Below, in pieces: positions 41,837 through 63,956 of a stretch of DNA of 64,000 nucleotides. This DNA is from Atopobium sp. oral taxon 416 (GTDB lineage: Bacteria; Actinomycetota; Coriobacteriia; Coriobacteriales; Atopobiaceae), in NCBI RefSeq assembly GCF_018128285.1, contig NZ_CP072380.1, positions 496,001 through 560,000 of the forward strand. The letters are read 5' to 3'. A program made the position numbers and the translations under genes. The notes beneath the pieces are model-generated. The model was not told where the DNA came from, did not search any database, and saw only the letters and a program-made list of their open reading frames with translations. Within the stretch, counting starts at the first letter, position 1. Each line of letters begins with the position of its first letter.

Positions 41837-43147
41837 GTGGAAATCGTAAAGACTGTTCACGCAATGCGTGGTGTCGCGCCCGCGCTTGCGGCCTCCTCAC
41901 TCGAAGCTAGAAACCAAGCGCTCGACAATATCGCCGAAGGACTCAAGAACCATGCACAGGCGATCTTTTCGGCTAACCGGGCAGACTGCAGCAACGCCCA
42001 GGCTGTGGGTATCGCTCCAACTATCTTGCATCGGCTGAAATACGATGAGAAGAGACTGCAGGAGAGCTTAGATCAGCTTGAGGAGCTCAAAGGGCTTGAA
42101 GACCCTATCGGCCGCCTCGAGATGGAGCGCAAGCTGGATAACGACCTGGTGCTGCGCCGGGTTAGCTGCCCGATCGGCGTCTTAGGCGTTATCTTTGAGG
42201 CACGTCCGGATGCGCTGATCCAGATCGGTTCGCTGTGCCTCAAGAGCGGCAATGTAGCTATCCTCAAAGGTGGCAGCGAGGCGAAGCGCACCAACGAAGC
42301 GCTGTTCGAGATCGTCCACGACGCCTATGTGTCAGCAGGATTGCCTGAGCTCTCCTTGTCCCTGGCGCAGACGCATGCTGAGATCGATGAGCTGTTGGCG
42401 TGTGACAAGGATGTTGACCTGCTGATCCCGCGTGGTTCCAACGCCTTTGTCCGCTACATTATGGACCACACCAAGATCCCGGTAATGGGACACGCAGAGG
42501 GCGTCTGCCACATCTATGTACATAAGGATGCGGATCCTAAGAGAGCCATCTCCATCGTGGTTGATTCAAAGACCCAGTATCCGGCGGTGTGCAATGCGGC
42601 AGAGACCCTACTGATCGATCGAGCGGTTGCCCCTGAACTGCTGCCGAAGATTGCGCAGGCGCTCGCACAGCGGGGAGCGCGTCTGAGAGGGACCCAGGAA
42701 GTCGTCCACCTGCTCAAGAGAACACCGGACATCCCGGCGGTGGAGCTGATGGGGGACAACGAGTTCCACACCGAGTACGGCGATCTTGTTATGAGCTGCA
42801 AGATCGTGGAGAATATCGAGGAAGCTGTCCAACACATCAACCGCTGGAGCTCCCACCACACCGATGCGATTGTCACGGAAGACGAGTGCGCCGCCCAGTT
42901 CTTTATGCGCTTTGTCGACTCTGCCGATGTATACCACAACTGCTCAACCCGGTTTGCGGACGGTTTCCGTTATGGCTTCGGCGCTGAGGTAGGCATCGCG
43001 ACCGGTAAGCTGCAGGCCCGCGGGCCGGTCGGCCTGGAGGGGCTTGAGAGCTATAAATATCTGTTGGAAGGCAACGGCAACATTGTGGCTTCCTACGCTT
43101 CGGGGAAGCGCCACTTCCACTTCAAGGACATCAAGCCGCTCTACTAA
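41837..43147 (+). CDS. proA: Glutamate-5-semialdehyde dehydrogenase
   Basis: Gamma-glutamyl phosphate reductase of 436 aa in proline synthesis. IFEARPDALIQIGSLCLKSGNVAILKGGSEA and LIPRGSNAFVRYI are conserved; catalytic Cys lies in YPAVCNAAETLL. GTG start after AAAGGA. No proB is adjacent. Its stop overlaps the convergent elp3 stop by 4 bp. Confidence 0.96.
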   Translation: MEIVKTVHAMRGVAPALAASSLEARNQALDNIAEGLKNHAQAIFSANRADCSNAQAVGIAPTILHRLKYDEKRLQESLDQLEELKGLEDPIGRLEMERKLDNDLVLRRVSCPIGVLGVIFEARPDALIQIGSLCLKSGNVAILKGGSEAKRTNEALFEIVHDAYVSAGLPELSLSLAQTHAEIDELLACDKDVDLLIPRGSNAFVRYIMDHTKIPVMGHAEGVCHIYVHKDADPKRAISIVVDSKTQYPAVCNAAETLLIDRAVAPELLPKIAQALAQRGARLRGTQEVVHLLKRTPDIPAVELMGDNEFHTEYGDLVMSCKIVENIEEAVQHINRWSSHHTDAIVTEDECAAQFFMRFVDSADVYHNCSTRFADGFRYGFGAEVGIATGKLQARGPVGLEGLESYKYLLEGNGNIVASYASGKRHFHFKDIKPLY

Positions 43148-44988
43148 TCGGTGAGGTCGATGCGCTGGTAGAGCCCATTGTCTTTAAAGCCCAGATGGCG
43201 GTAGTACTCGCGGGTTCCGACAGCGCTCACGACATTTAACTTAGAATATCCGGCGCCTCGCGCAATCTCTTTCGCGCGATCGATCAGCTGTCTGCCGAGC
43301 CCGCGGTGTTGAGCCGAAGCATCCGCTTTACCTAAGTGTGCTTCCTGTCCGTAGACGTGGACCTCGCGGATCATCGCTTCGCCGGGCTCGGTCGGCACTT
43401 CCTCGGCTGTGACATTGAGCGTGTGCGTGGCAAGCTCATCCCAGTGGGGGAGGGAGAGGCGCAAAAAGCCCACAATATGGTTGTCTGGCGTGACCCACTG
43501 CAGGAAATGCTCGCTTGAGGTCAGTGTCTTATAGGGCACATCGTCGAGCGTAAGCTGTGAGAGATCGACCGCTTTGCGGGCGATTTCACGGTAGCGGATA
43601 TCGTGGATGAGGCCGGATTCTCCAGCTTTCTCAATCTTCTGCTCCACCATTTGACGCAGGTTGGTTTTCTTGTTGCCGACCATAATGTCCTGTGCACTGA
43701 TGTCGCGGATCATGCGGGAGATTCTGACATAGGAAGGTGTCACGAGGGTGTCGTGCACAAGGACATCGAGGAGCTCGTCTTCGCTGTACGGCTTCCAGTG
43801 TTCCTCTTCATATTCCTTCACCAGGGCGGTCCCCTGAACCAAAGTGCAGGGGTAGAGCTTGATCTCGTCGGGTAGGAAGCGCTTGTCCTCAACGAAGGTC
43901 TCGAAGTCCTTTTTATCTGCCTCGGGGTCAGATCCCAGTAAGTTCACCATCAGATGCGTATGGATCTTGAAGCCGTAGAGCCGGATCAAGTTGAGTGTCC
44001 GGGAGATCTGCTCGATCGTCGTAGCGCGGTGGTTGATATCGAGGATCTGCTGACGGGTGGATTGGATACCCACCTGCACTTTGGTGCAGCCGAGGGTGCG
44101 GAAGAAGCGCAGGCTCTCGGGAGTGATCGCATCGGGACGGGTTTCGATTACGAGGCCGACCATACGCTGGGCGGCAGTCTCGTTCTTCTTCTGCTCTGTT
44201 TTGAGCTCCTCAAGGCTTGCTGCCATGCGTCTCCACACGGTCTGGTAGGGGACCGCATGGTCGTAGAGCTTGTGCCAAGCCTGATTGAAGGTCTCCTTAC
44301 CCTGATAAACTTTCTCTTGTTCGGTGGAGACGAAGTCCTGCAGCATAGCATCCTGATTGGAGAGCCCGGAGCCACGGTAGACCTGATAGCGGGAACGGAT
44401 CGTGCCAATATCGTTGGGCCACTCGTTGAGGGCTCGGAAGAGTTCCTTTATGAACCAGATCTGATAACTTTGGGGATAGTCGCTCCAGGTGCCGCCGAGG
44501 ACGATCAGCTCGATCTTGTCGGTTGCGTGGCCCATCTGGCGCAGGGCACGCAGACGCGTAGTGACCTGTAGGTAAGGATCGAAGTAGTTCTGCTCAGCCC
44601 GCTGACAGGCCGGCTCGTGGTAGAGGTAGCTTTTCGGCATCCGTAAATCGCACGGGCAGTACAGGCAGTTGCTCGAGCAGGTGTAAGGGCGGGTGATTAC
44701 GGTGATGGTGGAGACGCCTGAGGCGGTGCGCCGTGGTTTCATGCGCACACTCAGCAGGAAGCGGTGCTCCAACTCCGGATCGATATGCCAGCTTTCCCAC
44801 AGCTTTTTGCTGTGTTCTTTGATATGGAGGTAGGCGGGCAGGATATTGCGCTTCTTGTAGCGGTGATTTCCGTTGAGCTCACGGCTGTGTTTGCGGATCA
44901 GGTGATCCAACTCATCAGGAGTGAGGGGACGGGAGGTATTGCTCGTTGCTCGCAGTGTGGCAAATATGTCTTCTATCAGTGATTCCAT
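43144..44988 (-). CDS. elp3: Elp3-family tRNA uridine(34) cm5U-forming enzyme
   Basis: Radical SAM plus GNAT protein of 614 aa. Fe-S cluster motif C104-x3-C108-x2-C111 (YTCSSNCLYCPCD), radical SAM barrel to about 400 (GLVIETRPDAI, VQVGIQST, HTHLMVNLLGSDPEADK), and a C-terminal acetyl-CoA-binding domain (HRGLGRQLIDRAKE). Elp3 uses acetyl-CoA to build the carboxymethyl group on wobble uridine. A bacterial stand-alone Elp3. TATAAT lies 8 bp before the ATG, so the mRNA may be leaderless. A Trm9-like methyltransferase gene lies upstream beyond two insertion elements. Confidence 0.93.
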   Translation of the reverse strand: MESLIEDIFATLRATSNTSRPLTPDELDHLIRKHSRELNGNHRYKKRNILPAYLHIKEHSKKLWESWHIDPELEHRFLLSVRMKPRRTASGVSTITVITRPYTCSSNCLYCPCDLRMPKSYLYHEPACQRAEQNYFDPYLQVTTRLRALRQMGHATDKIELIVLGGTWSDYPQSYQIWFIKELFRALNEWPNDIGTIRSRYQVYRGSGLSNQDAMLQDFVSTEQEKVYQGKETFNQAWHKLYDHAVPYQTVWRRMAASLEELKTEQKKNETAAQRMVGLVIETRPDAITPESLRFFRTLGCTKVQVGIQSTRQQILDINHRATTIEQISRTLNLIRLYGFKIHTHLMVNLLGSDPEADKKDFETFVEDKRFLPDEIKLYPCTLVQGTALVKEYEEEHWKPYSEDELLDVLVHDTLVTPSYVRISRMIRDISAQDIMVGNKKTNLRQMVEQKIEKAGESGLIHDIRYREIARKAVDLSQLTLDDVPYKTLTSSEHFLQWVTPDNHIVGFLRLSLPHWDELATHTLNVTAEEVPTEPGEAMIREVHVYGQEAHLGKADASAQHRGLGRQLIDRAKEIARGAGYSKLNVVSAVGTREYYRHLGFKDNGLYQRIDLTD

Positions 44989-44996
44989 AGCAACTC

Positions 44997-45002
44997 ATTA
45001 TA
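44997..45002 (-). promoter_or_regulatory. Likely -10 box of elp3, leaderless
   Basis: Perfect TATAAT on the minus strand with 8 bp (GAGTTGCT) to the ATG and no ribosome site between. Transcription would start at or next to the start codon. The -35 region is weak. Confidence 0.55.
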
Positions 45003-45099
45003 AAGCCCTGACTGTACGCTCAGGAAGGCCAGCCGGGAAAAGTCAGGCCCTTTACAAGTCCCTGGAATGGACGTCCGTCTTGAGGATCGTGATAAGGGA

Positions 45100-46117
45100 T
45101 GCGAATCCTCATTGCTAGTGCAACAGCAAGGATTAAAGAACAGCGACCCGGGGTCTCTCACAATGTGATGGTATCCGCGAAAAAACAATCAAAGGAGGCT
45201 GCCCTGGGCTGCTACCATCATCTTAGCTTAGAGAAGCGAAAAGATGTCCCGCTTTCCCACACTGAAGGCAAAGACACATCCCAAGATTGTCAGAAAGCTA
45301 CACCGCAACAAGTCGACCATAGCTTGTAAGCTTGCAGCAAACTCATGCAACCAAGAAGTATCCGATATACGATACAGAGGCATCTGTTGTACAGGGGCAC
45401 TGCAACAGGCACAGGCAGTGAAGTCTCAAAGAGCCTCTGTGCCTGTGTGCAGGACAAGACTGTCAACTGTCAGCTATCACCACAACAGATCACAGGAAGG
45501 CCCACACTAAAGAAGGGATCATCTCCTGTAGCCTGTGCCACGCTCTGCAGAGCTATCAGTGATCGCACACTTAAAGATAGCTTGGCCTTGTACGTATCAA
45601 GTTCCCCGCGATGTCGCTGACAGACCTGATAAGGCAGATGAGCGCTTAAAGGATCAAAGGCTGAGAAGGCAGATAGCACACTGTGGGGAAAGATAAGGGG
45701 CCTCACACTTGTCGGCAGGAAGCACAAGATACCTAAGCGCTACCTCTTGGCACAGACACATACAGCACAAGCTGTAGCTAAGACAGGAAAGCTTGCTGTA
45801 TTTGGTTGTCCTGTCAAGACCAGCACACCAAAGAGAGACAAAAGGGTCTGCACAGCACAGAGATGTCACACAGACACTGAAAGCTGAGCTTCTCTTCTGT
45901 CTGCCTTATCACCCGTGGCAAAAAGCGAGCGTTGAAAGACAGCTATGGCCCTATCTAAGAGTATCTCCCAACGCGTACAAGCTTTCGTGATACCACCTTA
46001 TCTGAAGTCAGACAGCTCTATACGAATGCTACCAACCTAAGACCGAATAGATGCCTCGCTAACAAGACACCCTGGGACGTCTTTCACTTTCAGACGTTGC
46101 AGTTGGTAGGGGAATTA
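45100..46117 (+). mobile_element. Decayed IS30-family element (IS30-C)
   Basis: Left end GCGAATCCTCATTGCTAGTG followed by CAACAG matches the ends of two other IS30 elements in the window; a weaker matching end (AATTCCCC...CTGCAAC, minus strand) closes it near 46117. Transposase fragments in many frames: YHHLSLEKRKDV, then KLHRNKSTIACKL, and the C-terminal FCLPYHPWQKASVERQLWPYLR. Base composition is lower in GC than around it. Heavily degraded. Confidence 0.7.
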
Positions 46118-46120
46118 AAG

Positions 46121-47490
46121 GGGCTCTTCGACACGATGTGTGAATGAAAAATATGCGAATGTACAGGTGACACGGCACGTTCTCCTGTAGGTTTTAGGTG
46201 TGAAGTAAAGACCCGGCAAAAGGAGCGCACCGTGCGCGTCTCAAGCTTAGCCAAGATCATGATCGGCATCGAGAATATCGTCGTAAAGGATGTGTCCTTC
46301 GACGAGGACGCACAGGCGATCGTGATCGACGCCAAGGCCCCACTCCTGCAGATGCGGCAAGTGCGGGCAGAAGGCCCCCCTGCTACGATGCAGGCAGGGG
46401 AACCAGGCGCTGGAGATGCCCCGATGTCGTCGGGACGAAGGTGTATGTGCAGGCGGATACATTCAAGGTGAGGTGCCCGAAATGCGATACCGCGGTGCGG
46501 AAGCTGCCCTGGGCAGACCATGGTAGCTGGCAACCCGTGCCTTTGAGGACACCTGCTGCTGGCTTGTGCTGTCGATGAGCAAGCTTGCCTGTCAAAGGCT
46601 TCTGCGCATCTTGTGGAGGTGGGTGGGCGCGATATGCTCGCGCGTGCTGACAAGGCTCAATCTGGCGCAGCCGCCAAAGACGGCAGACCTCAGGTGGATA
46701 GGTGTGGACGAGACAAGCTACAAGAAGGGCCACAGCTACATGACGGGCATAGCCGCAAGGTCTTCGACGCCTTCTTCGAGCAGATCGCCGTTAAGGGAAG
46801 GGAGCCCATCGACCTTGTGAGTGCGGACGGAGCGCGTTGGGTGGACGATGCGATGAAGGAGTGGGTGGCACATGCGCTGCGCTGCACAGACACCTTCCAC
46901 ATCGTCCAGTGGACAGCAGAGCTGCTCGACGAGCTGTGCCGCCAGTCATGGAGGGCGGCCGTGCAGAAGGCCAAGGCAGCACCAAAGGGGAGGCGAGCCC
47001 CGAAAGGAAGGCCGCAACATCCGTGAAGGGCCCAAGGGACCCGCTCCTTCAAGAACCCAGAGAGCTTGACCGAAAGGCAGAAGGCAGCGCTTCAGCTCAC
47101 TGCGATCTTGCAGCCGCGCCTCCACAGGGCATATCTGCTGAAGGAAGGGTTGAGACTTGCCCTGAAGCTGCCTGCTAACGAGATCAGGGAGGGCATCGGG
47201 AAGTGGAGGGGCAGGGCCTAGCGCTCGAGGATCCCCTAAGTTCGTCGAGCTCTAAAAGAAGATCAGAAGGCATCTGGATACCATCGTCGCCACCTTGGAG
47301 AGCGGCCTGTCCAACGCACGCGTGGAGGCCATCAACAACAAGATCAAGCTGACCGTGAGGATGGCCTATAGCTTTCGCAGCCTCGACAACCTCTTCGCGA
47401 TAGTGATGCTCATATGCTCGGGGCTCCAGGTGCCGCTGCTGGGGAGGGCCTAAAGCTTACATTTCGGTTCACACATTGTGCAGGTGCCTC
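46121..47490 (+). mobile_element. ISL3-family element (ISL3-A), decayed
   Basis: Ends GGGCTCTTCGACACGATGTG and, on the other strand, GAGGCACCTGCACAATGTGT form imperfect inverted repeats running on into TGAA. Contains an ISL3 transposase remnant. Its right end abuts the start region of the methyltransferase gene. Confidence 0.7.
46232..47452 (+). pseudogene. ISL3-family transposase remnant
   Basis: Plus-strand fragments in order: SSLAKIMIGIENIVVKDVSFDE; zinc-ribbon region CPKCDTAVRKLPWADHGSW; WRWVGAICSRVLTRLNLAQPPKTADLRWIGVDETSYKKGHSYMT; FFEQIAVKGREPIDLVSADGARWVDDAMKEWVAHALRCTDTFHIVQW; C-terminal KLTVRMAYSFRSLDNLFAIVMLI. Several frameshifts and stops. Confidence 0.8.
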
Positions 47491-47507
47491 CAATAAAATG
47501 GCCTATT

Positions 47508-48332
47508 ATGAATCAGGAGTTTCGAGAAGAATCCGTTGACGGGGAAAGGCACCACGACAGTATGAACAACCAGGTAGCCCGACGCTTGGATGCTCTGACT
47601 GAGGAGTTTTATCAGCGTAATGCAGTGAGCTTTGATGCGACGCGGCAAAGCTCCTGGCCGGGATGGTCAAAGTGCCTTGAGGCAGCGGGACTGCAAGGAC
47701 AGAATCCTGAGCGTCTGAAGGTCCTGGATGTAGCTGCGGGTAATCTGCGCTTCGCCCGTTTTCTGAATGATGCCTTTCCAGACACAGAGCTGATCTATAC
47801 GGCGGTTGATTCCTGTGAACCATTGCTGGCGAATTCAAAGCCGATTTCGCATGGACGGGTAAACGTCCAGGTTATCGATCTGATCGAGGAGCTCCTGAAG
47901 GGGAATGAAGATTTGTTTAGTGCCTGTGGGCAGCAGGATTTAGCCGTTTGTTTCGGCTTTCTGCACCATACCCCCACTGAAGAGGCGCGTATACATCTAT
48001 TGCAGTCAATTGTGGAAGCACTGAAGCCCGGCGGCATCGCTGCGATCTCCTTTTGGCGGTTTATGGAAGTGCCTTCACTTGCAAAGAAGACTCAATGGAC
48101 AACACAGAAAGCGCTGCAGAAGCTCTGTCTCTCCGAAAGTGATCTAGATCAGGGAGACTATTTGCTCGGGTGGGGAGAGACCTCTGATTCCTGGCGGTAT
48201 TGCCACAATTTTAACGATGCAGAACTCAAGCGCTACTGTGAGGCACTGACGGGGAGCGCAGAGCTTGTACAGCATTTCCGCTCCGATGGTAGACCTGGAG
48301 ATCTCAATTCATATCTGGTGTTGAGGGCGTAA
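47508..48332 (+). CDS. Trm9/ALKBH8-like SAM-dependent methyltransferase
   Basis: Class I methyltransferase of 274 aa. Before the SAM domain it has NAVSFDATRQSSWPGW (39-53), close to the FSxTRxxxWP signature of Trm9-type tRNA wobble methyltransferases. SAM motif I is VLDVAAGNLRFARFL (72-86); later YCHNFNDAELKRY and the end DLNSYLVLRA parallel Trm9 tails. Trm9 esterifies cm5U34 to mcm5U34; elp3 makes cm5U. Start uncertain: ATG 47508 chosen because upstream codons lie in ISL3-A; ATG 47562 is also possible. Function is inferred from motif plus neighbourhood. Confidence 0.7.
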   Translation: MNQEFREESVDGERHHDSMNNQVARRLDALTEEFYQRNAVSFDATRQSSWPGWSKCLEAAGLQGQNPERLKVLDVAAGNLRFARFLNDAFPDTELIYTAVDSCEPLLANSKPISHGRVNVQVIDLIEELLKGNEDLFSACGQQDLAVCFGFLHHTPTEEARIHLLQSIVEALKPGGIAAISFWRFMEVPSLAKKTQWTTQKALQKLCLSESDLDQGDYLLGWGETSDSWRYCHNFNDAELKRYCEALTGSAELVQHFRSDGRPGDLNSYLVLRA

Positions 48333-48554
48333 TATCAGGTCAATCGAAGCATAGGAGAAGTATCTTGCACAATAAGCCATAAATGGGGAACGATGTATGA
48401 CTCCTAAGGCAGAGAAGTTCAGTATGTACATACCTCCTCAAGAGAAGAAAGAATTGGAAGCGCTGTTTGGTAGCCGGGGGATGACACTGCCGGAAGCAGT
48501 CAATATCCTCTTCTATAAGTCTCTTATGGTCGATGACATGCCTTTGATGCGCAG

Positions 48555-49666
48555 GGGACTCCAGACATTTTTCCGGATCTAGGCTGCATATGCGCAGCTA
48601 AGGCCCCTCCTGTGCTCCCTGAGCGTCCTCCACCCACAAGGCACGCTTGAGCTTGGTCAAACAATACCACTCGATGTAGCTGTCAAGACAGCTCTTGAAC
48701 TCCTCGAATGTGCTGTCAGCCCAATCCATGCCGGAAAAGAGGTCAGACTTGAGCGTGCCGAAAAAGCCTTTGGCACGGGCATTGTCAGGGGGCTTTTGTC
48801 CTTGGGCGACATCGAGCGGGCGGCGTTGCCCCCTGCTGCAGGCATCTGCCCGTTCGTCTGTCATATAGAGCGCACCGGTGTCCGTATGCACGACGAGGGG
48901 GCCTTCCCTCGAAGAGTCCTATCTTGCCCACCAGATCCTCGAGCATGTCGACCGCAAGCTCACAGTCGGGATGCATCGATACCTTCCAGCATACAAGCCA
49001 GCCGTTGAAGCAGTCGATGGCGGAAGAGAGATAGGCCTTGTAGCCATCCAGGGCGAACTTCGCCTCAGCGTTGACCACGAGCAGCCCTAGCTCCCCTGCG
49101 TGGAAGTCGTGGATGCCATCCTGTTTGAGTGGTACGTTCTCGGGCCTCACCGCCGCACTCACCTGCCTCGCTGCCTGGACCTGCCCTGGACTTCTCCGGG
49201 CTCGTTAAAAAGCCAGGGTCTGCTGCTTTTAGGGTATCCAGTACCGCCAATGCCCTACGAGCTTGACTTCGCTCATCTAGGCTCTCTCGGCCAAATCGTC
49301 GGGCAGCTTACGGCGAAGGCGCACCATGTGGTGTGCACGGGGTACCTATCGATATCTGATGCGGTCTGCCTGCCGTCTTGGACATGCGCTGTCACGGCGA
49401 GTATATCATGTCAGCCGTACCCATAGTTGGGACTGCCCTGTCCGTGGGTACAGTACATGCTGCTGTGTACAGGCCCGCCTCCTCCATGGGCAGCCAACCG
49501 CACAGAACGCTTGTGCTGGGCAAGCAGGCGCAGTGTGCGACAGACCTCCCCAGTCAACAGGCCGCTCTCGTAAAACTCCCGGAGCAATCCCCTTGCGCTC
49601 TTCTTTGGTATACATCCCGGACTCCGATTCCAAACCAGCTGGTCCGACTTTTTGTCCGGGGTCCCC
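48555..49666 (-). mobile_element. IS3-family element (IS3-B), decayed
   Basis: About 1.1 kb inside the antitoxin gene; ends GGGACTCCAGACA on the left and, reading the other strand, GGGACCCCGGACA on the right. Minus-strand orfA remnant at about 49411-49660 (MYTKEER..., LLREFYESGLLTGEVCRTL) and an orfB with integrase core at 48598-49162 (FALDGYKAYLSSAIDCFNGWLVCW; PDNARAKGFFGTLKSDLF; SYIEWYCLTKLKRALW). Multiple frameshifts. Confidence 0.75.
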
Positions 49667-49732
49667 ATAAGGCCAAATTTAATGAAGAGAATGAGGAGGC
49701 TTTGCAGGAAGCTAGAGATATTAAATTCCGGT

Positions 49733-50828
49733 CTCTCTGTTAGACCACGATTGATCTGAGAAGGGCCCAATGTTGTCCGGGCCTTTGCCTACAATGCATG
49801 TCGCCAAACAAAGACATCGAGAAACGGACGGGCCGGACTCAATGATACTGCAGCAGATCGAGAAGATAGGCATCGCTAAGAAGATGGCAGGATCCGCTCT
49901 CGCAGGTAAACCCAAAAGATATCCGAGGTATAGGTCTGCAGACCTCTTCTGTAAGGGGCACTCTGCACAAGGCCATCATGGAAGTGTCGCTCCTGTGGCA
50001 GGACCTTCTCGGTGAAGATAGGATCGGTCACAGCGATATCGAAGCTTTTCACCACCACAGGGACAAAGTATGCAAAAGACACGCTTGCGGGCATGTCACT
50101 TAAACCAGCTTATGAAGAGCAGCCATGTGAGCCTTAAGGACCTCGTGGGTTCCATGCACATGAGGCTCTTTGAGGCAGTGGGGTCTGCCCTGAAGTCTCC
50201 CAGGAGCGCCCATGTCGTCTGCTGCCAGGCAGAGGGGCTTGCCCTCGACGAGTCGCTTGTGGGCAGCAGGGCAAGGTCGGCTGTACAGATGCGCGATAGC
50301 ACACAGGCCACGGCCATACCGTGCACTCAAGCAGCATATCAAGTCTCAAGGTTTGCAAAGAGTGCTAAGCGAGTCGGGAGAGCGAGTATACAACACTTCA
50401 GGGGGCCCACCAATTCAAAGTTAAAGGTTGCCCTTTCAGGCATCGCCGACAGCTCTTGGGTCGCAACAGACAACCATGCAAGGTATGCGCGCATCCTTTC
50501 CTTACTCGGCGTTGTTGAGTACACGTCAAGCGTGGTGAAGGAGTCCAGGGACAGTGAGAAGCGACCTTGTCAATGCGATGCAGCGAAGGCTCAGGCAAGT
50601 TCTTGCTTTCCCTCTATGGGGTGTCGACGAAATGGCTGCAGTGCTTGCTTCGCCTGCTTGCTGTGGACAAAGCAGGCGAAGCATTCGAAGCAGGACAGCA
50701 AGGCGATGTCCTCAGGACAGCCCACAGAAGGCAGCTATGTACACACGAGGCGCACTTGTCGACATGCCCTAGCCTCTCTGGGACTGGTGGAAGGCAAGGG
50801 TCGATGTCAATGGTGGTCTTACAGAGAG
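49733..50828. mobile_element. Unclassified element with 22-bp inverted ends
   Basis: Ends CTCTCTGTTAGACCACGATT and, on the other strand, CTCTCTGTAAGACCACCATT pair almost perfectly; TTCCGGT lies at both outer edges (49726-49732, 50830-50836) as a 7-8 bp target duplication. I could not assign a transposase family: no frame gives a convincing domain, although open stretches exist on both strands. The left end also appears at 63957. Sequence is decayed. Confidence 0.65.
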
Positions 50829-50957
50829 TTTCCGGTAAGAAAGAAGCAATGTCGTATCGCTCTGCAAAAGAACTGTTTGAAGATTTGGGGATCTAAGCCT
50901 ATTGACATGTGCTATCGCAGCACAGTTAGAAATATATTGCTGAGATAGTGAAAATGA

Positions 50958-50991
50958 GAGGGAAGATACTCCGCTGGGAGTATCTTCCCTC
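50958..50991 (-). terminator. Terminator of icd
   Basis: Perfect 15-bp stem GAGGGAAGATACTCC/GGAGTATCTTCCCTC with a 4-nt loop, 22 bp past the icd stop on the minus strand, followed by TCATTTTCAC. Confidence 0.85.
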
Positions 50992-51013
50992 GAACTGGTC
51001 CTATGTAGCCAAA

Positions 51014-63081: not shown

Positions 63082-63897
63082 CTATCGGTTATGTTTAAAA
63101 TAGTTTTCGTGATGTTTGTGTTCGTAGTTCTTGAGGTTCACCACGGTGTTCTCCATCCCATAGGGGATGTAACCGAGATCATCCAAGTTCTCAGGCAGAT
63201 ACTTTGAGAGTGAAAGCTCTGCGGTCTGGACCGGATGCTCCGGAGCCGGATCCTGCGGGGTCGCCTTGAGCCCCAGGACATGGGCGCCCTGTGCGACAAG
63301 CCGCTCCTCGTACTCCGTTACTGGTTCGTCGGGCAACTTGCCTCGCGTGAAGCGGGTCTGCCAATCGAGGTGGTAGTTCACGAGCTTAAGCTGGGTCAGC
63401 GTGAAGTCGAAGTAGGGTTGGCTATCAGTCTTGAGAATCAAGCTACAGCCGGGCTTCAAGATTTTGCGGTAATCCAAGAGGCGCTCGAGAATCGTCAAGC
63501 GATACTCTGCGAGGCGTTTCTTGGGAAACGGTGTCGGGAAGTTGATGCGGATGGAGTCAAGCTCGTGCGGTCCAAAAAACTTTGTTACATCGGAGCCCAT
63601 CCCCGGCACCATCACTGCATTGGTGAGGTGGTGCTCACAGACATTCTGCGCTGCATAGGCGATACAGACGGGCTCGGTGTCCATTCCGATAAAGAGGATG
63701 TCAGGATGCATCGCAGCCATGCCGCAGGCAAAAGTGCCTTTGCCGCAGCCGAGGTCGAGTACGACCTTTTTATACGCCTCTCCGTCGTCCAGAGGATGGC
63801 AAGCTTGAGCCCAATGCCCTGCAAAGTGCTCCGGCTTGGTTTCAATTGCCGCAGCATAGCGGTTAAGGCGCTCCTCGAGGTTGAAGTTTTTCGGCAT
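63082..63897 (-). CDS. trmB: tRNA (guanine-N7)-methyltransferase
   Basis: SAM methyltransferase of about 271 aa forming m7G46 in tRNA. SAM motif LDLGCGKGTFACGMA, INFPTPFPKKRLAEYRLT (in place of the usual FPDPWPKKRH), and KTDSQPYFDFTL. The C-terminal about 70 aa extends beyond the usual end. ATG 63897 fits AAAGGA; ATG 63927 would add ten residues. Confidence 0.85.
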   Translation of the reverse strand: MPKNFNLEERLNRYAAAIETKPEHFAGHWAQACHPLDDGEAYKKVVLDLGCGKGTFACGMAAMHPDILFIGMDTEPVCIAYAAQNVCEHHLTNAVMVPGMGSDVTKFFGPHELDSIRINFPTPFPKKRLAEYRLTILERLLDYRKILKPGCSLILKTDSQPYFDFTLTQLKLVNYHLDWQTRFTRGKLPDEPVTEYEERLVAQGAHVLGLKATPQDPAPEHPVQTAELSLSKYLPENLDDLGYIPYGMENTVVNLKNYEHKHHENYFKHNR

Positions 63898-63956
63898 CCG
63901 TGCATGTCCTTTATGCAGCTTGTGCATCCAATGACTCCCTGTAATTCTTTATCTCG

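What the first reader, a model, noticed from the sequence alone, without database searches (positions are those of the whole stretch)
43144..48332. Bacterial Elp3 beside a Trm9-like methyltransferase: possible mcm5U wobble pathway
elp3 encodes an intact radical SAM/GNAT enzyme. The next surviving gene upstream, in divergent orientation, encodes a methyltransferase with SFDATRQSSWPGW ahead of its SAM motif, close to the FSxTRxxxWP signature of Trm9/ALKBH8. In eukaryotes Elp3 makes cm5U34 and Trm9 methyl-esterifies it to mcm5U34. Bacteria normally modify this uridine by MnmE/MnmG. The two genes would be adjacent but for IS30-C and ISL3-A. Seen: motifs and order. Known: the eukaryotic pathway. 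Inferred: that they act together here.
Basis: partly seen in the sequence, partly recalled or inferred. Interest (0 to 1): 0.78.

Follow-up and report, generated by a model that had tools for sequence, protein, structure and literature searches.

The report
Bacterial Elp3–Trm9-like tRNA wobble gene pair
Some bacteria appear to carry the two-enzyme route that eukaryotes use to decorate the wobble base of tRNA, as a pair of genes kept side by side across distant bacterial groups, which predicts a tRNA modification not listed for bacteria in the review read here.

Summary
Window 43144-44988(-) encodes an Elp3 with every catalytic residue I checked. Window 47478-48332(+; likely start 47562) encodes a class I methyltransferase. 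IS30- and ISL3-type fragments lie between them. Four family profiles rank Trm9 (5cm2) first among 177,635 PDB sequences; the single window sequence does not. Four of five residues known to matter in yeast Trm9 are all present in 27 of 27 class relatives and in 0 of 14 other methyltransferases; Tyr243 is Cys. In 197 genomes of the class, 95 have both genes, one Elp3 alone, none the methyltransferase alone, 101 neither; 88 of 95 pairs are divergent within 6 kb. In 296 genomes of the phylum the same 23 carry both. A scan seeded only on the methyltransferase reached Patescibacteria: 28 of 33 loci have Elp3 divergently beside it. MnmG passes its cut-off in 1 of 197 class genomes. Best reading: Elp3 makes cm5U34 and this enzyme methyl-esterifies it to mcm5U34, apparently without a dedicated Trm112. 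Weak points: no activity data, no structure prediction (tool off), unresolved tree, an IS element abutting the methyltransferase gene. Ten literature searches listed no bacterial Trm9 report.

The parts
43144..44988 (-). elp3: radical SAM + GNAT tRNA U34 carboxymethylation enzyme, 614 aa
   Evidence: TIGR01211 413.7 bits; all nine PDB matches listed are Elp3 family; Fe-S Cys 104/108/111, Glu282, Lys377, Tyr379 and Tyr595 identical in all 38 Elp3 compared; Glu282/Lys377/Tyr379 put opposite Min E207/K302/Y304 by motif
47478..48332 (+). Trm9-like class I methyltransferase, 284 aa from GTG; likely true start ATG 47562 (256 aa)
   Evidence: frame; family alignment A1; family profile ranks Trm9 5cm2 first in PDB; Trm9 residues R29, H115, R241, N271 conserved
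45778..45987 (+). piece of a degraded IS30-like transposase between the pair
   Evidence: NF033563 E 5.9e-5, below its cut-off; no Pfam match
46527..47453 (+). ISL3 transposase fragments in several frames, ending 24 bp before the GTG of the methyltransferase frame
   Evidence: PF01610 and NF033550 matches to separate pieces; sequence read
48785..49162 (-). IS3-like transposase fragment downstream of the methyltransferase
   Evidence: PF00665 below cut-off, NF033516 E 3e-7 below cut-off
41837..43147 (+). neighbour of elp3 on its other side, Aldedh family (proA-like, name recalled); not part of the pathway
   Evidence: PF00171

Best explanation
The two genes are a bacterial wobble-uridine pathway. 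Elp3, acting alone, uses acetyl-CoA and radical SAM chemistry to put a carboxymethyl group on C5 of U34 (cm5U). The neighbouring Trm9-like methyltransferase then transfers a methyl group from SAM to that carboxylate, giving mcm5U34, probably mcm5s2U34 in tRNAs for Lys, Glu and Gln. Shown here: intact genes, conserved catalytic residues, homology to Trm9 by family profile, near-perfect co-occurrence and conserved divergent adjacency in two bacterial phyla, and no MnmG over its cut-off in 196 of 197 class genomes. Inferred: both reactions, the tRNA substrates, the thiolation step (no thiolase was searched), and independence from Trm112.
For: Co-occurrence: 95 of 197 class genomes have both, 1 Elp3 only, 0 methyltransferase only, 101 neither (Fisher p 1e-56, relatedness not corrected). 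88 of 95 are divergent within 6 kb. In 296 phylum genomes the 23 with Elp3 at E<=1e-40 are exactly the 23 with a methyltransferase match at E<=1e-13; 17 are class members, some of them rows of the profile, and 6 lie outside it. Seeded on the methyltransferase alone, 33 loci were found, mostly Patescibacteria; 28 have Elp3 divergently beside it (one a fragment at a contig end), and in 4 of the other 5 the contig ends on that side; 31 of 33 genomes hold Elp3 over cut-off. Trm9 5cm2 is the top PDB match for four family profiles (1.9e-6, 1.9e-20, 3.9e-16, 3.1e-26). Class and non-class profiles align full length including the C-terminal RYxH motif (E 7e-34). All four of R29, H115, R241, N271 are present in 27 of 27 class, 6 of 6 other Actinomycetota and 24 of 27 patescibacterial proteins, and in 0 of 14 other methyltransferases. 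Yeast Trm9 as query finds only this gene in the window's genome (E 0.005) and finds the Elp3-linked gene best in 10 of 11 carriers outside the class. Elp3 catalytic residues are identical in 38 of 38. Elp3 and methyltransferase distances correlate (r 0.90 over 38 loci; 0.82 within 23 Patescibacteria).
Against: No activity, tRNA or structure evidence (structure prediction was off). The window sequence alone finds 9fce, 3gu3 and 2gh1 in the PDB, not Trm9. Trm9 Tyr243 is Cys in 27 of 27 class proteins. No dedicated Trm112, which eukaryotic Trm9 needs, was recognised (PMC5372719). The tree does not resolve Trm9 with the bacterial proteins and puts the class next to an unrelated row with weak support (62/94; AU p 0.47 for holding all together). 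With single-sequence Trm9 the linked gene was best in only 6 of 14 class carriers, another gene in 4, none in 4, and the non-carrier G056 had a match at 2.9e-6. With the A4 profile it was best in 25 of 36 carriers, another in 10, none in 1. G096 has Elp3 but no methyltransferase was found. In this genome an IS fragment lies directly before the methyltransferase, so its expression is uncertain.
Confidence: 0.75

Rival explanations
1. The methyltransferase acts on the Elp3 product, but mcm5U is not the end point: the ester is an intermediate to ncm5U or another derivative, or a different group on the side chain is methylated.
For: The genetic linkage fits any enzyme acting after Elp3. A yeast trm9 mutant accumulates ncm5U (title and start of abstract of PMC3110198, search listings only). 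Cys in place of Tyr243 and Gly in place of the Pro at yeast position 167 suggest an altered pocket.
Against: R29, H115, R241 and N271 equivalents, which affect tRNA binding and activity in yeast Trm9, are kept (PMC5372719 section 8).
Confidence: 0.15
2. The pair works like the Gram-positive MnmL/MnmM route (a radical SAM enzyme plus a methyltransferase; recalled) and ends in mnm5U-type products.
For: Elp3 has secondary similarity to MnmL/YtqA (TIGR01212, 68 bits against a cut-off of 180).
Against: The GNAT domain, absent from MnmL (recalled), is present with its motifs. The methyltransferase matches Methyltransf_11/12/23/25, not the rRNA_methylase family of MnmM (family assignment recalled), and the PDB entry 'putative rRNA methylase' 3eey comes far down (E 0.57).
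Confidence: 0.04
3. The methyltransferase acts on something unrelated (small molecule or protein), and its place next to elp3 reflects a shared divergent promoter or gene order inherited without functional reason.
For: Class I methyltransferases are hard to assign by sequence. In G136, G163 and the locus L098 the genes are apart.
Against: Joint presence in 95 of the 96 class genomes with Elp3 and 23 of 23 phylum genomes, the same arrangement in Patescibacteria, the Trm9 likeness, and conservation of the four Trm9 residues.
Confidence: 0.06

Closest known systems
Eukaryotic Elongator (Elp3) + Trm9-Trm112 / ALKBH8 pathway to mcm5(s2)U34
   Same: Same pair of enzyme types; Elp3 catalytic residues kept; four of five functional Trm9 residues kept; N-terminal F..TR...W and C-terminal RYxH...N motifs kept
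   Different: Bacterial; other Elongator subunits were not searched; no dedicated Trm112 recognised; Tyr243 replaced by Cys in the class; genes adjacent and divergent; insert of about 65 residues in the class Elp3
Predicted archaeal Elp3/Trm9 sets (Haloferax volcanii; clustered in Sulfolobus solfataricus)
   Same: Predicted mcm5s2U-like pathway from the same gene pair, clustered in at least one archaeon (PMC2584109, passages; PMC5372719, passages)
   Different: Archaeal; Trm112 widespread there, sometimes fused; here bacterial, in two phyla, with a nearly constant divergent arrangement
Bacterial Elp3 of Dehalococcoides mccartyi
   Same: Elp3 alone in a bacterium, structure solved (PMC6367351, passages)
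   Different: No methyltransferase partner described in the passages read; whether it has one was not tested
Bacterial MnmE/MnmG (MnmC) and MnmL/MnmM routes
   Same: Modify the same base, C5 of U34
   Different: Different enzymes and products; MnmG over cut-off in only 1 of 197 class genomes; MnmE, MnmL and MnmM not searched in genomes

Membership tests
Elp3 | Sequence model TIGR01211 over cut-off | tested here: met
   413.7 vs 350 bits
Elp3 | Radical SAM CxxxCxxC, tunnel residues E/K/Y (Min E207, K302, Y304), KAT Tyr | tested here: met
   Cys104/108/111, Glu282, Lys377, Tyr379, Tyr595; identical in 38 of 38 aligned Elp3; roles of E/K/Y from PMC13315578 section 10; positions matched by motif
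Elp3 | Three Zn-binding cysteines of bacterial and archaeal Elp3 | tested here: not met
   Absent in the window; of four other class Elp3 shown three have none and one a single Cys; eukaryotic Elp3 lacks them too (PMC6367351 passages), so not required for membership
Elp3 | Forms cm5U34 in tRNA | not testable with these tools
   needs assay or mass spectrometry
Trm9/ALKBH8 methyltransferase | Closer to Trm9 than to other class I methyltransferases of known structure | tested here: met
   5cm2 first of 177,635 with four family profiles, 30.8 to 95.3 bits; small margin (1.9e-6 vs 1.1e-4); not met with the single window sequence
Trm9/ALKBH8 methyltransferase | Residues R29, H115, R241, Y243, N271 of yeast Trm9 | tested here: inconclusive
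   The four other than Y243 are together present in 27/27 class, 6/6 other Actinomycetota, 24/27 patescibacterial and 0/14 other methyltransferases; each alone occurs in 5 to 8 of those 14. Y243 is Cys in 27/27 class proteins.
Trm9/ALKBH8 methyltransferase | Has the activator Trm112 | tested here: not met
   In 24 carriers PF03966 passes the cut-off in 5, all in frames of 246 to 793 aa; G476, G228 and G130 read as a Zn knuckle ahead of a methyltransferase, the window genome's match as priA by eye. One match just below the cut-off (21.3 vs 22 bits, 19 positions) lies in a 79-aa frame of G264. Independence in vitro not tested
Trm9/ALKBH8 methyltransferase | Forms one clade with eukaryotic Trm9 | tested here: inconclusive
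   deep branches unresolved; class joined to an outgroup row at 62/94; held-together tree not rejected, p-AU 0.472
Trm9/ALKBH8 methyltransferase | Methylates cm5U34 | not testable with these tools
   needs assay
MnmM (YtqB) | Member of the rRNA_methylase Pfam family (recalled) | tested here: not met
   Pfam hits are Methyltransf_11/12/23/25 only
CmoM | cmo5U carboxyl methyltransferase sequence group | not tested
   no labelled CmoM sequence was compared; 4iwn and 4gek, labelled tRNA (cmo5U34)-methyltransferase (CmoA, recalled), ranked below Trm9

The most novel reading that the evidence does not exclude
Many bacteria (part of the window's class, a second actinobacterial group including Ca. Subteraquimicrobium, and several patescibacterial lineages) make mcm5(s2)U34 with a two-gene Elp3-Trm9 module in which a free-standing Trm9 works without Trm112. 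The eukaryotic wobble pathway would then be one branch of an older prokaryotic module, and within one bacterial class it has been kept or lost as a unit in lineages that have no MnmEG to fall back on.
Probability: 0.5. Interest if true: 0.82.

Novelty: new variant of a known kind. Interest (0 to 1): 0.74.

Why it matters
The review passages read here assign mcm5U to archaea and eukaryotes and the MnmEG products to bacteria (PMC7694415). If this pair makes mcm5U, a 'eukaryotic' wobble modification exists in bacteria. It would come with a minimal two-enzyme system that could show what Elongator's other subunits and Trm112 add, and with natural comparison sets: 101 of 197 class genomes have neither Elp3 nor the methyltransferase, and only one of these (G071) has MnmG over its cut-off. 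A tRNA LC-MS comparison of culturable relatives would settle it.

Tried and rejected
Structure prediction of the methyltransferase was attempted and is switched off for all sessions, so no fold comparison was made. Trm112 in the window's genome: a match over the cut-off lies in a 793-aa frame that reads as priA by eye, so it was rejected as a partner. The phylogeny does not resolve Trm9 among the bacterial groups; neither the clade of everything nor the clade without the window's class is rejected. MnmL/MnmM was considered and set aside. Pfam found no IS30 in the pieces between the genes; NCBIfam found a weak match in one of three pieces. A search of 45000-47478 and 48333-51000 for repeats elsewhere in the window showed no second copy of the fragments between the genes. 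Literature searches (ten of ten) showed no paper on bacterial Trm9 in their listings; several listings were capped at 10 to 20 of 50 to 389 papers, and the library holds open-licence PMC papers only, so this is weak evidence of absence. A Thorarchaeia elp3 mention (PMC10849945, passages) proved unrelated. Rows dropped: 3 of 30 class loci from alignment A1 (L017 and L023 near-duplicates, L026 truncated at the N-terminus); 14 of 27 class rows from the tree; in the distance comparison L088 and L089 (duplicates), L091, L102 and L106 (partial) and L144 (degraded copy), besides loci that lacked one of the two genes. One locus (L066) was given the wrong group and corrected.
Full report
What is there. 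The window (56% GC) is 64 kb of a single-contig 3.0 Mb genome. elp3 is an intact 614-aa frame at 43144-44988(-) and the methyltransferase an intact frame at 47478-48332(+). The Elp3 scores 413.7 bits to TIGR01211 against a cut-off of 350, and all nine PDB matches listed are Elp3. Its three radical-SAM cysteines, the Glu/Lys/Tyr of the acetate tunnel (roles from PMC13315578, section 10 read) and the acetyltransferase Tyr595 are identical in all 38 Elp3 I aligned. It differs from most other bacterial Elp3 shown in lacking the Zn cysteines and in an insert of about 65 residues, both seen in the four class relatives displayed, one of which keeps a single Cys. The 2.5 kb between the genes holds ISL3 transposase fragments and a weakly recognisable IS30 piece. 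The ISL3 fragment stops 24 bp before the GTG of the methyltransferase frame. The alignment places the likely start at ATG 47562.

Is the pairing real? In 197 genomes of the class, drawn from a larger group, the methyltransferase occurs in 95 and Elp3, counted as a strong TIGR01211 match (E<=1e-68; 92 over the curated cut-off), in 96. The sets coincide except for G096, whose Elp3 lies on a short contig that ends about 1.15 kb upstream of the gene and in which no methyltransferase was found anywhere. Of the 95, 62 pairs are divergent within 1 kb, 26 divergent at 1-6 kb, three near but called on the same strand, two on different contigs and two far apart. In 296 genomes spread over the phylum, 23 hold Elp3 at E<=1e-40 and the same 23 hold a methyltransferase match at E<=1e-13. 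The other 55 of the 78 genomes with a match at E<=0.001 are weaker (1.4e-8 or worse) and not counted. Some of the 17 class genomes are themselves rows of the profile; six of the 23 lie outside the class and are independent of it. Four of these six show the divergent pair on one contig, and in the other two the genes are on separate contigs.

Beyond the phylum. A scan of public genomes with the non-class methyltransferase alone found 33 loci. The other 30 are nearly all named as Patescibacteria or groups within it (Moran-, Peregrini-, Azam-, Nealson-, Portnoy-, Buchananbacteria and others); two bear no group name. Elp3 stands divergently next to it in 28 of 33, in L091 as a fragment at the contig end. 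In L093, L115, L117 and L120 the contig ends on that side; L098 is a real exception. Of the 33 genomes 31 have Elp3 over the cut-off. The query carried no Elp3 sequence, so the linkage was not selected for. Pairwise distances of the two proteins correlate (r 0.904 over 38 loci, 0 of 5000 permutations as high; 0.824 within 23 Patescibacteria, 0 of 5000; 0.424 within 11 class members, 18 of 5000), which fits joint inheritance.

Is it a Trm9? The window sequence alone does not find Trm9 in the PDB (three matches at E<=0.01, best 9fce at 5.5e-4). The class profile (27 proteins) has Trm9 5cm2 as best of 177,635 PDB sequences, narrowly (1.9e-6, next 1.1e-4). The profiles of the six other Actinomycetota proteins, of a mixed set and of 24 non-class proteins also put it first (1.9e-20, 3.9e-16, 3.1e-26). 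The class and non-class profiles align over their whole length, including the C-terminal RYxH stretch (hhalign E 7e-34). With the non-class profile A4, 31 matches in 48 class genomes reach profile position 200 or beyond, past the RYxH motif (192-195 in the first row of A4). All 31 are members already found, and none of the 12 genomes without the pair has one; six of the 36 carriers also have none (read from its table). As plain best hit the linked gene wins in 25 of 36 carriers, loses in 10 and is missed in one. With recalled yeast Trm9 as query it is best in 6 of 14 class carriers (another gene in 4, none in 4) and in 10 of 11 carriers outside the class; of four non-carriers one (G056) has a match as good as 2.9e-6 to another methyltransferase. 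Mutational work on yeast Trm9 names R29, H115, R241, Y243 and N271 (PMC5372719, section 8 read). All four apart from Y243 are present together in 27 of 27 class, 6 of 6 other Actinomycetota and 24 of 27 patescibacterial proteins, and in 0 of 14 other methyltransferases taken as outgroup, in which each alone occurs in 5 to 8. Y243 is Cys throughout the class, and most often His or Tyr in Patescibacteria. The maximum-likelihood tree cannot place Trm9 and joins the class to an outgroup row with weak support. So 'works like Trm9' is well supported and 'is a Trm9 orthologue' is probable but not shown.

Trm112. Eukaryotic Trm9 and ALKBH8 need Trm112 (PMC5372719). In 24 carriers PF03966 passes its cut-off in five, all in frames of 246 to 793 aa. 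Three of these (G476, G228, G130) read as a Zn knuckle ahead of a methyltransferase in one frame, and in the window's own genome the only match sits in a priA-like frame. In G479 the match and another methyltransferase-like match lie in frames of the same length on the same strand. One match just under the cut-off (21.3 of 22 bits, 19 positions) lies in a 79-aa frame of G264 and could be a divergent relative. So no dedicated Trm112 is shared by carriers; either the bacterial enzyme needs no activator or it uses something else.

Other U34 routes. MnmG reaches its cut-off in 1 of 197 class genomes (G071, a non-carrier), so the class sample as a whole lacks it, carriers and non-carriers alike. 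MnmE, MnmA and MnmL were not searched. The window carries a tRNA-Gln(UUG), a candidate substrate.

Known or new. Elp3+Trm9 is established for eukaryotes. It was predicted in 2008 for Haloferax and Sulfolobus, with the genes clustered in S. solfataricus (PMC2584109, passages; PMC5372719, passages). Elp3 alone is known in some bacteria (PMC6367351, passages). The review passages I read assign mcm5U to archaea and eukaryotes, not bacteria (PMC7694415). The listings of ten searches of the held library (some capped) showed no paper on a bacterial Trm9. I therefore call it a new variant of a known kind: a bacterial Elp3-Trm9 module, apparently without a dedicated Trm112.

Noticed in passing
L002 1501-1992 / L144 (G000:C1:2493015-2493506, minus strand): A second, degraded copy of the methyltransferase in the same genome (40% identical over 22-187, frame lost after the PGG motif), by eye closer to the copy of its genus-mate G194 than to the window's own gene.
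   Followed up: partly
L143 (G071:C8:4785-6713): The only class genome of 197 with MnmG over the cut-off; contamination or transfer.
   Followed up: no
class sample: 101 of 197 genomes have neither Elp3 nor the methyltransferase, and only one of these has MnmG over its cut-off; how they modify U34 is open.
   Followed up: no
L061 2043-2882 and 3887-5754: In G142 a TrmB-like gene (PF02390) sits directly behind the methyltransferase, and two extra frames (the first HTH regulator-like by eye) lie between it and elp3; 16 genomes show a gap of 2.1-2.2 kb. The window has a TrmB-like gene at 63085-63948, far from the pair.
   Followed up: partly
L146 (G479:C51:120-734): A patescibacterial 246-aa frame with a Trm112 domain (47 bits) and a methyltransferase-like match to Trm9, separate from the Elp3-linked gene.
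   Followed up: no
L150 (G264:C17:18987-19055): A 79-aa frame with a short Trm112-like match just below the Pfam cut-off.
   Followed up: partly
G058:C4:255279-256100: A second full-length family methyltransferase in a genome that already has the Elp3-linked one.
   Followed up: no
L051 8178-9992: A frame that reads as an NAD synthetase-like protein with a long insert resembling an intein (by eye).
   Followed up: no
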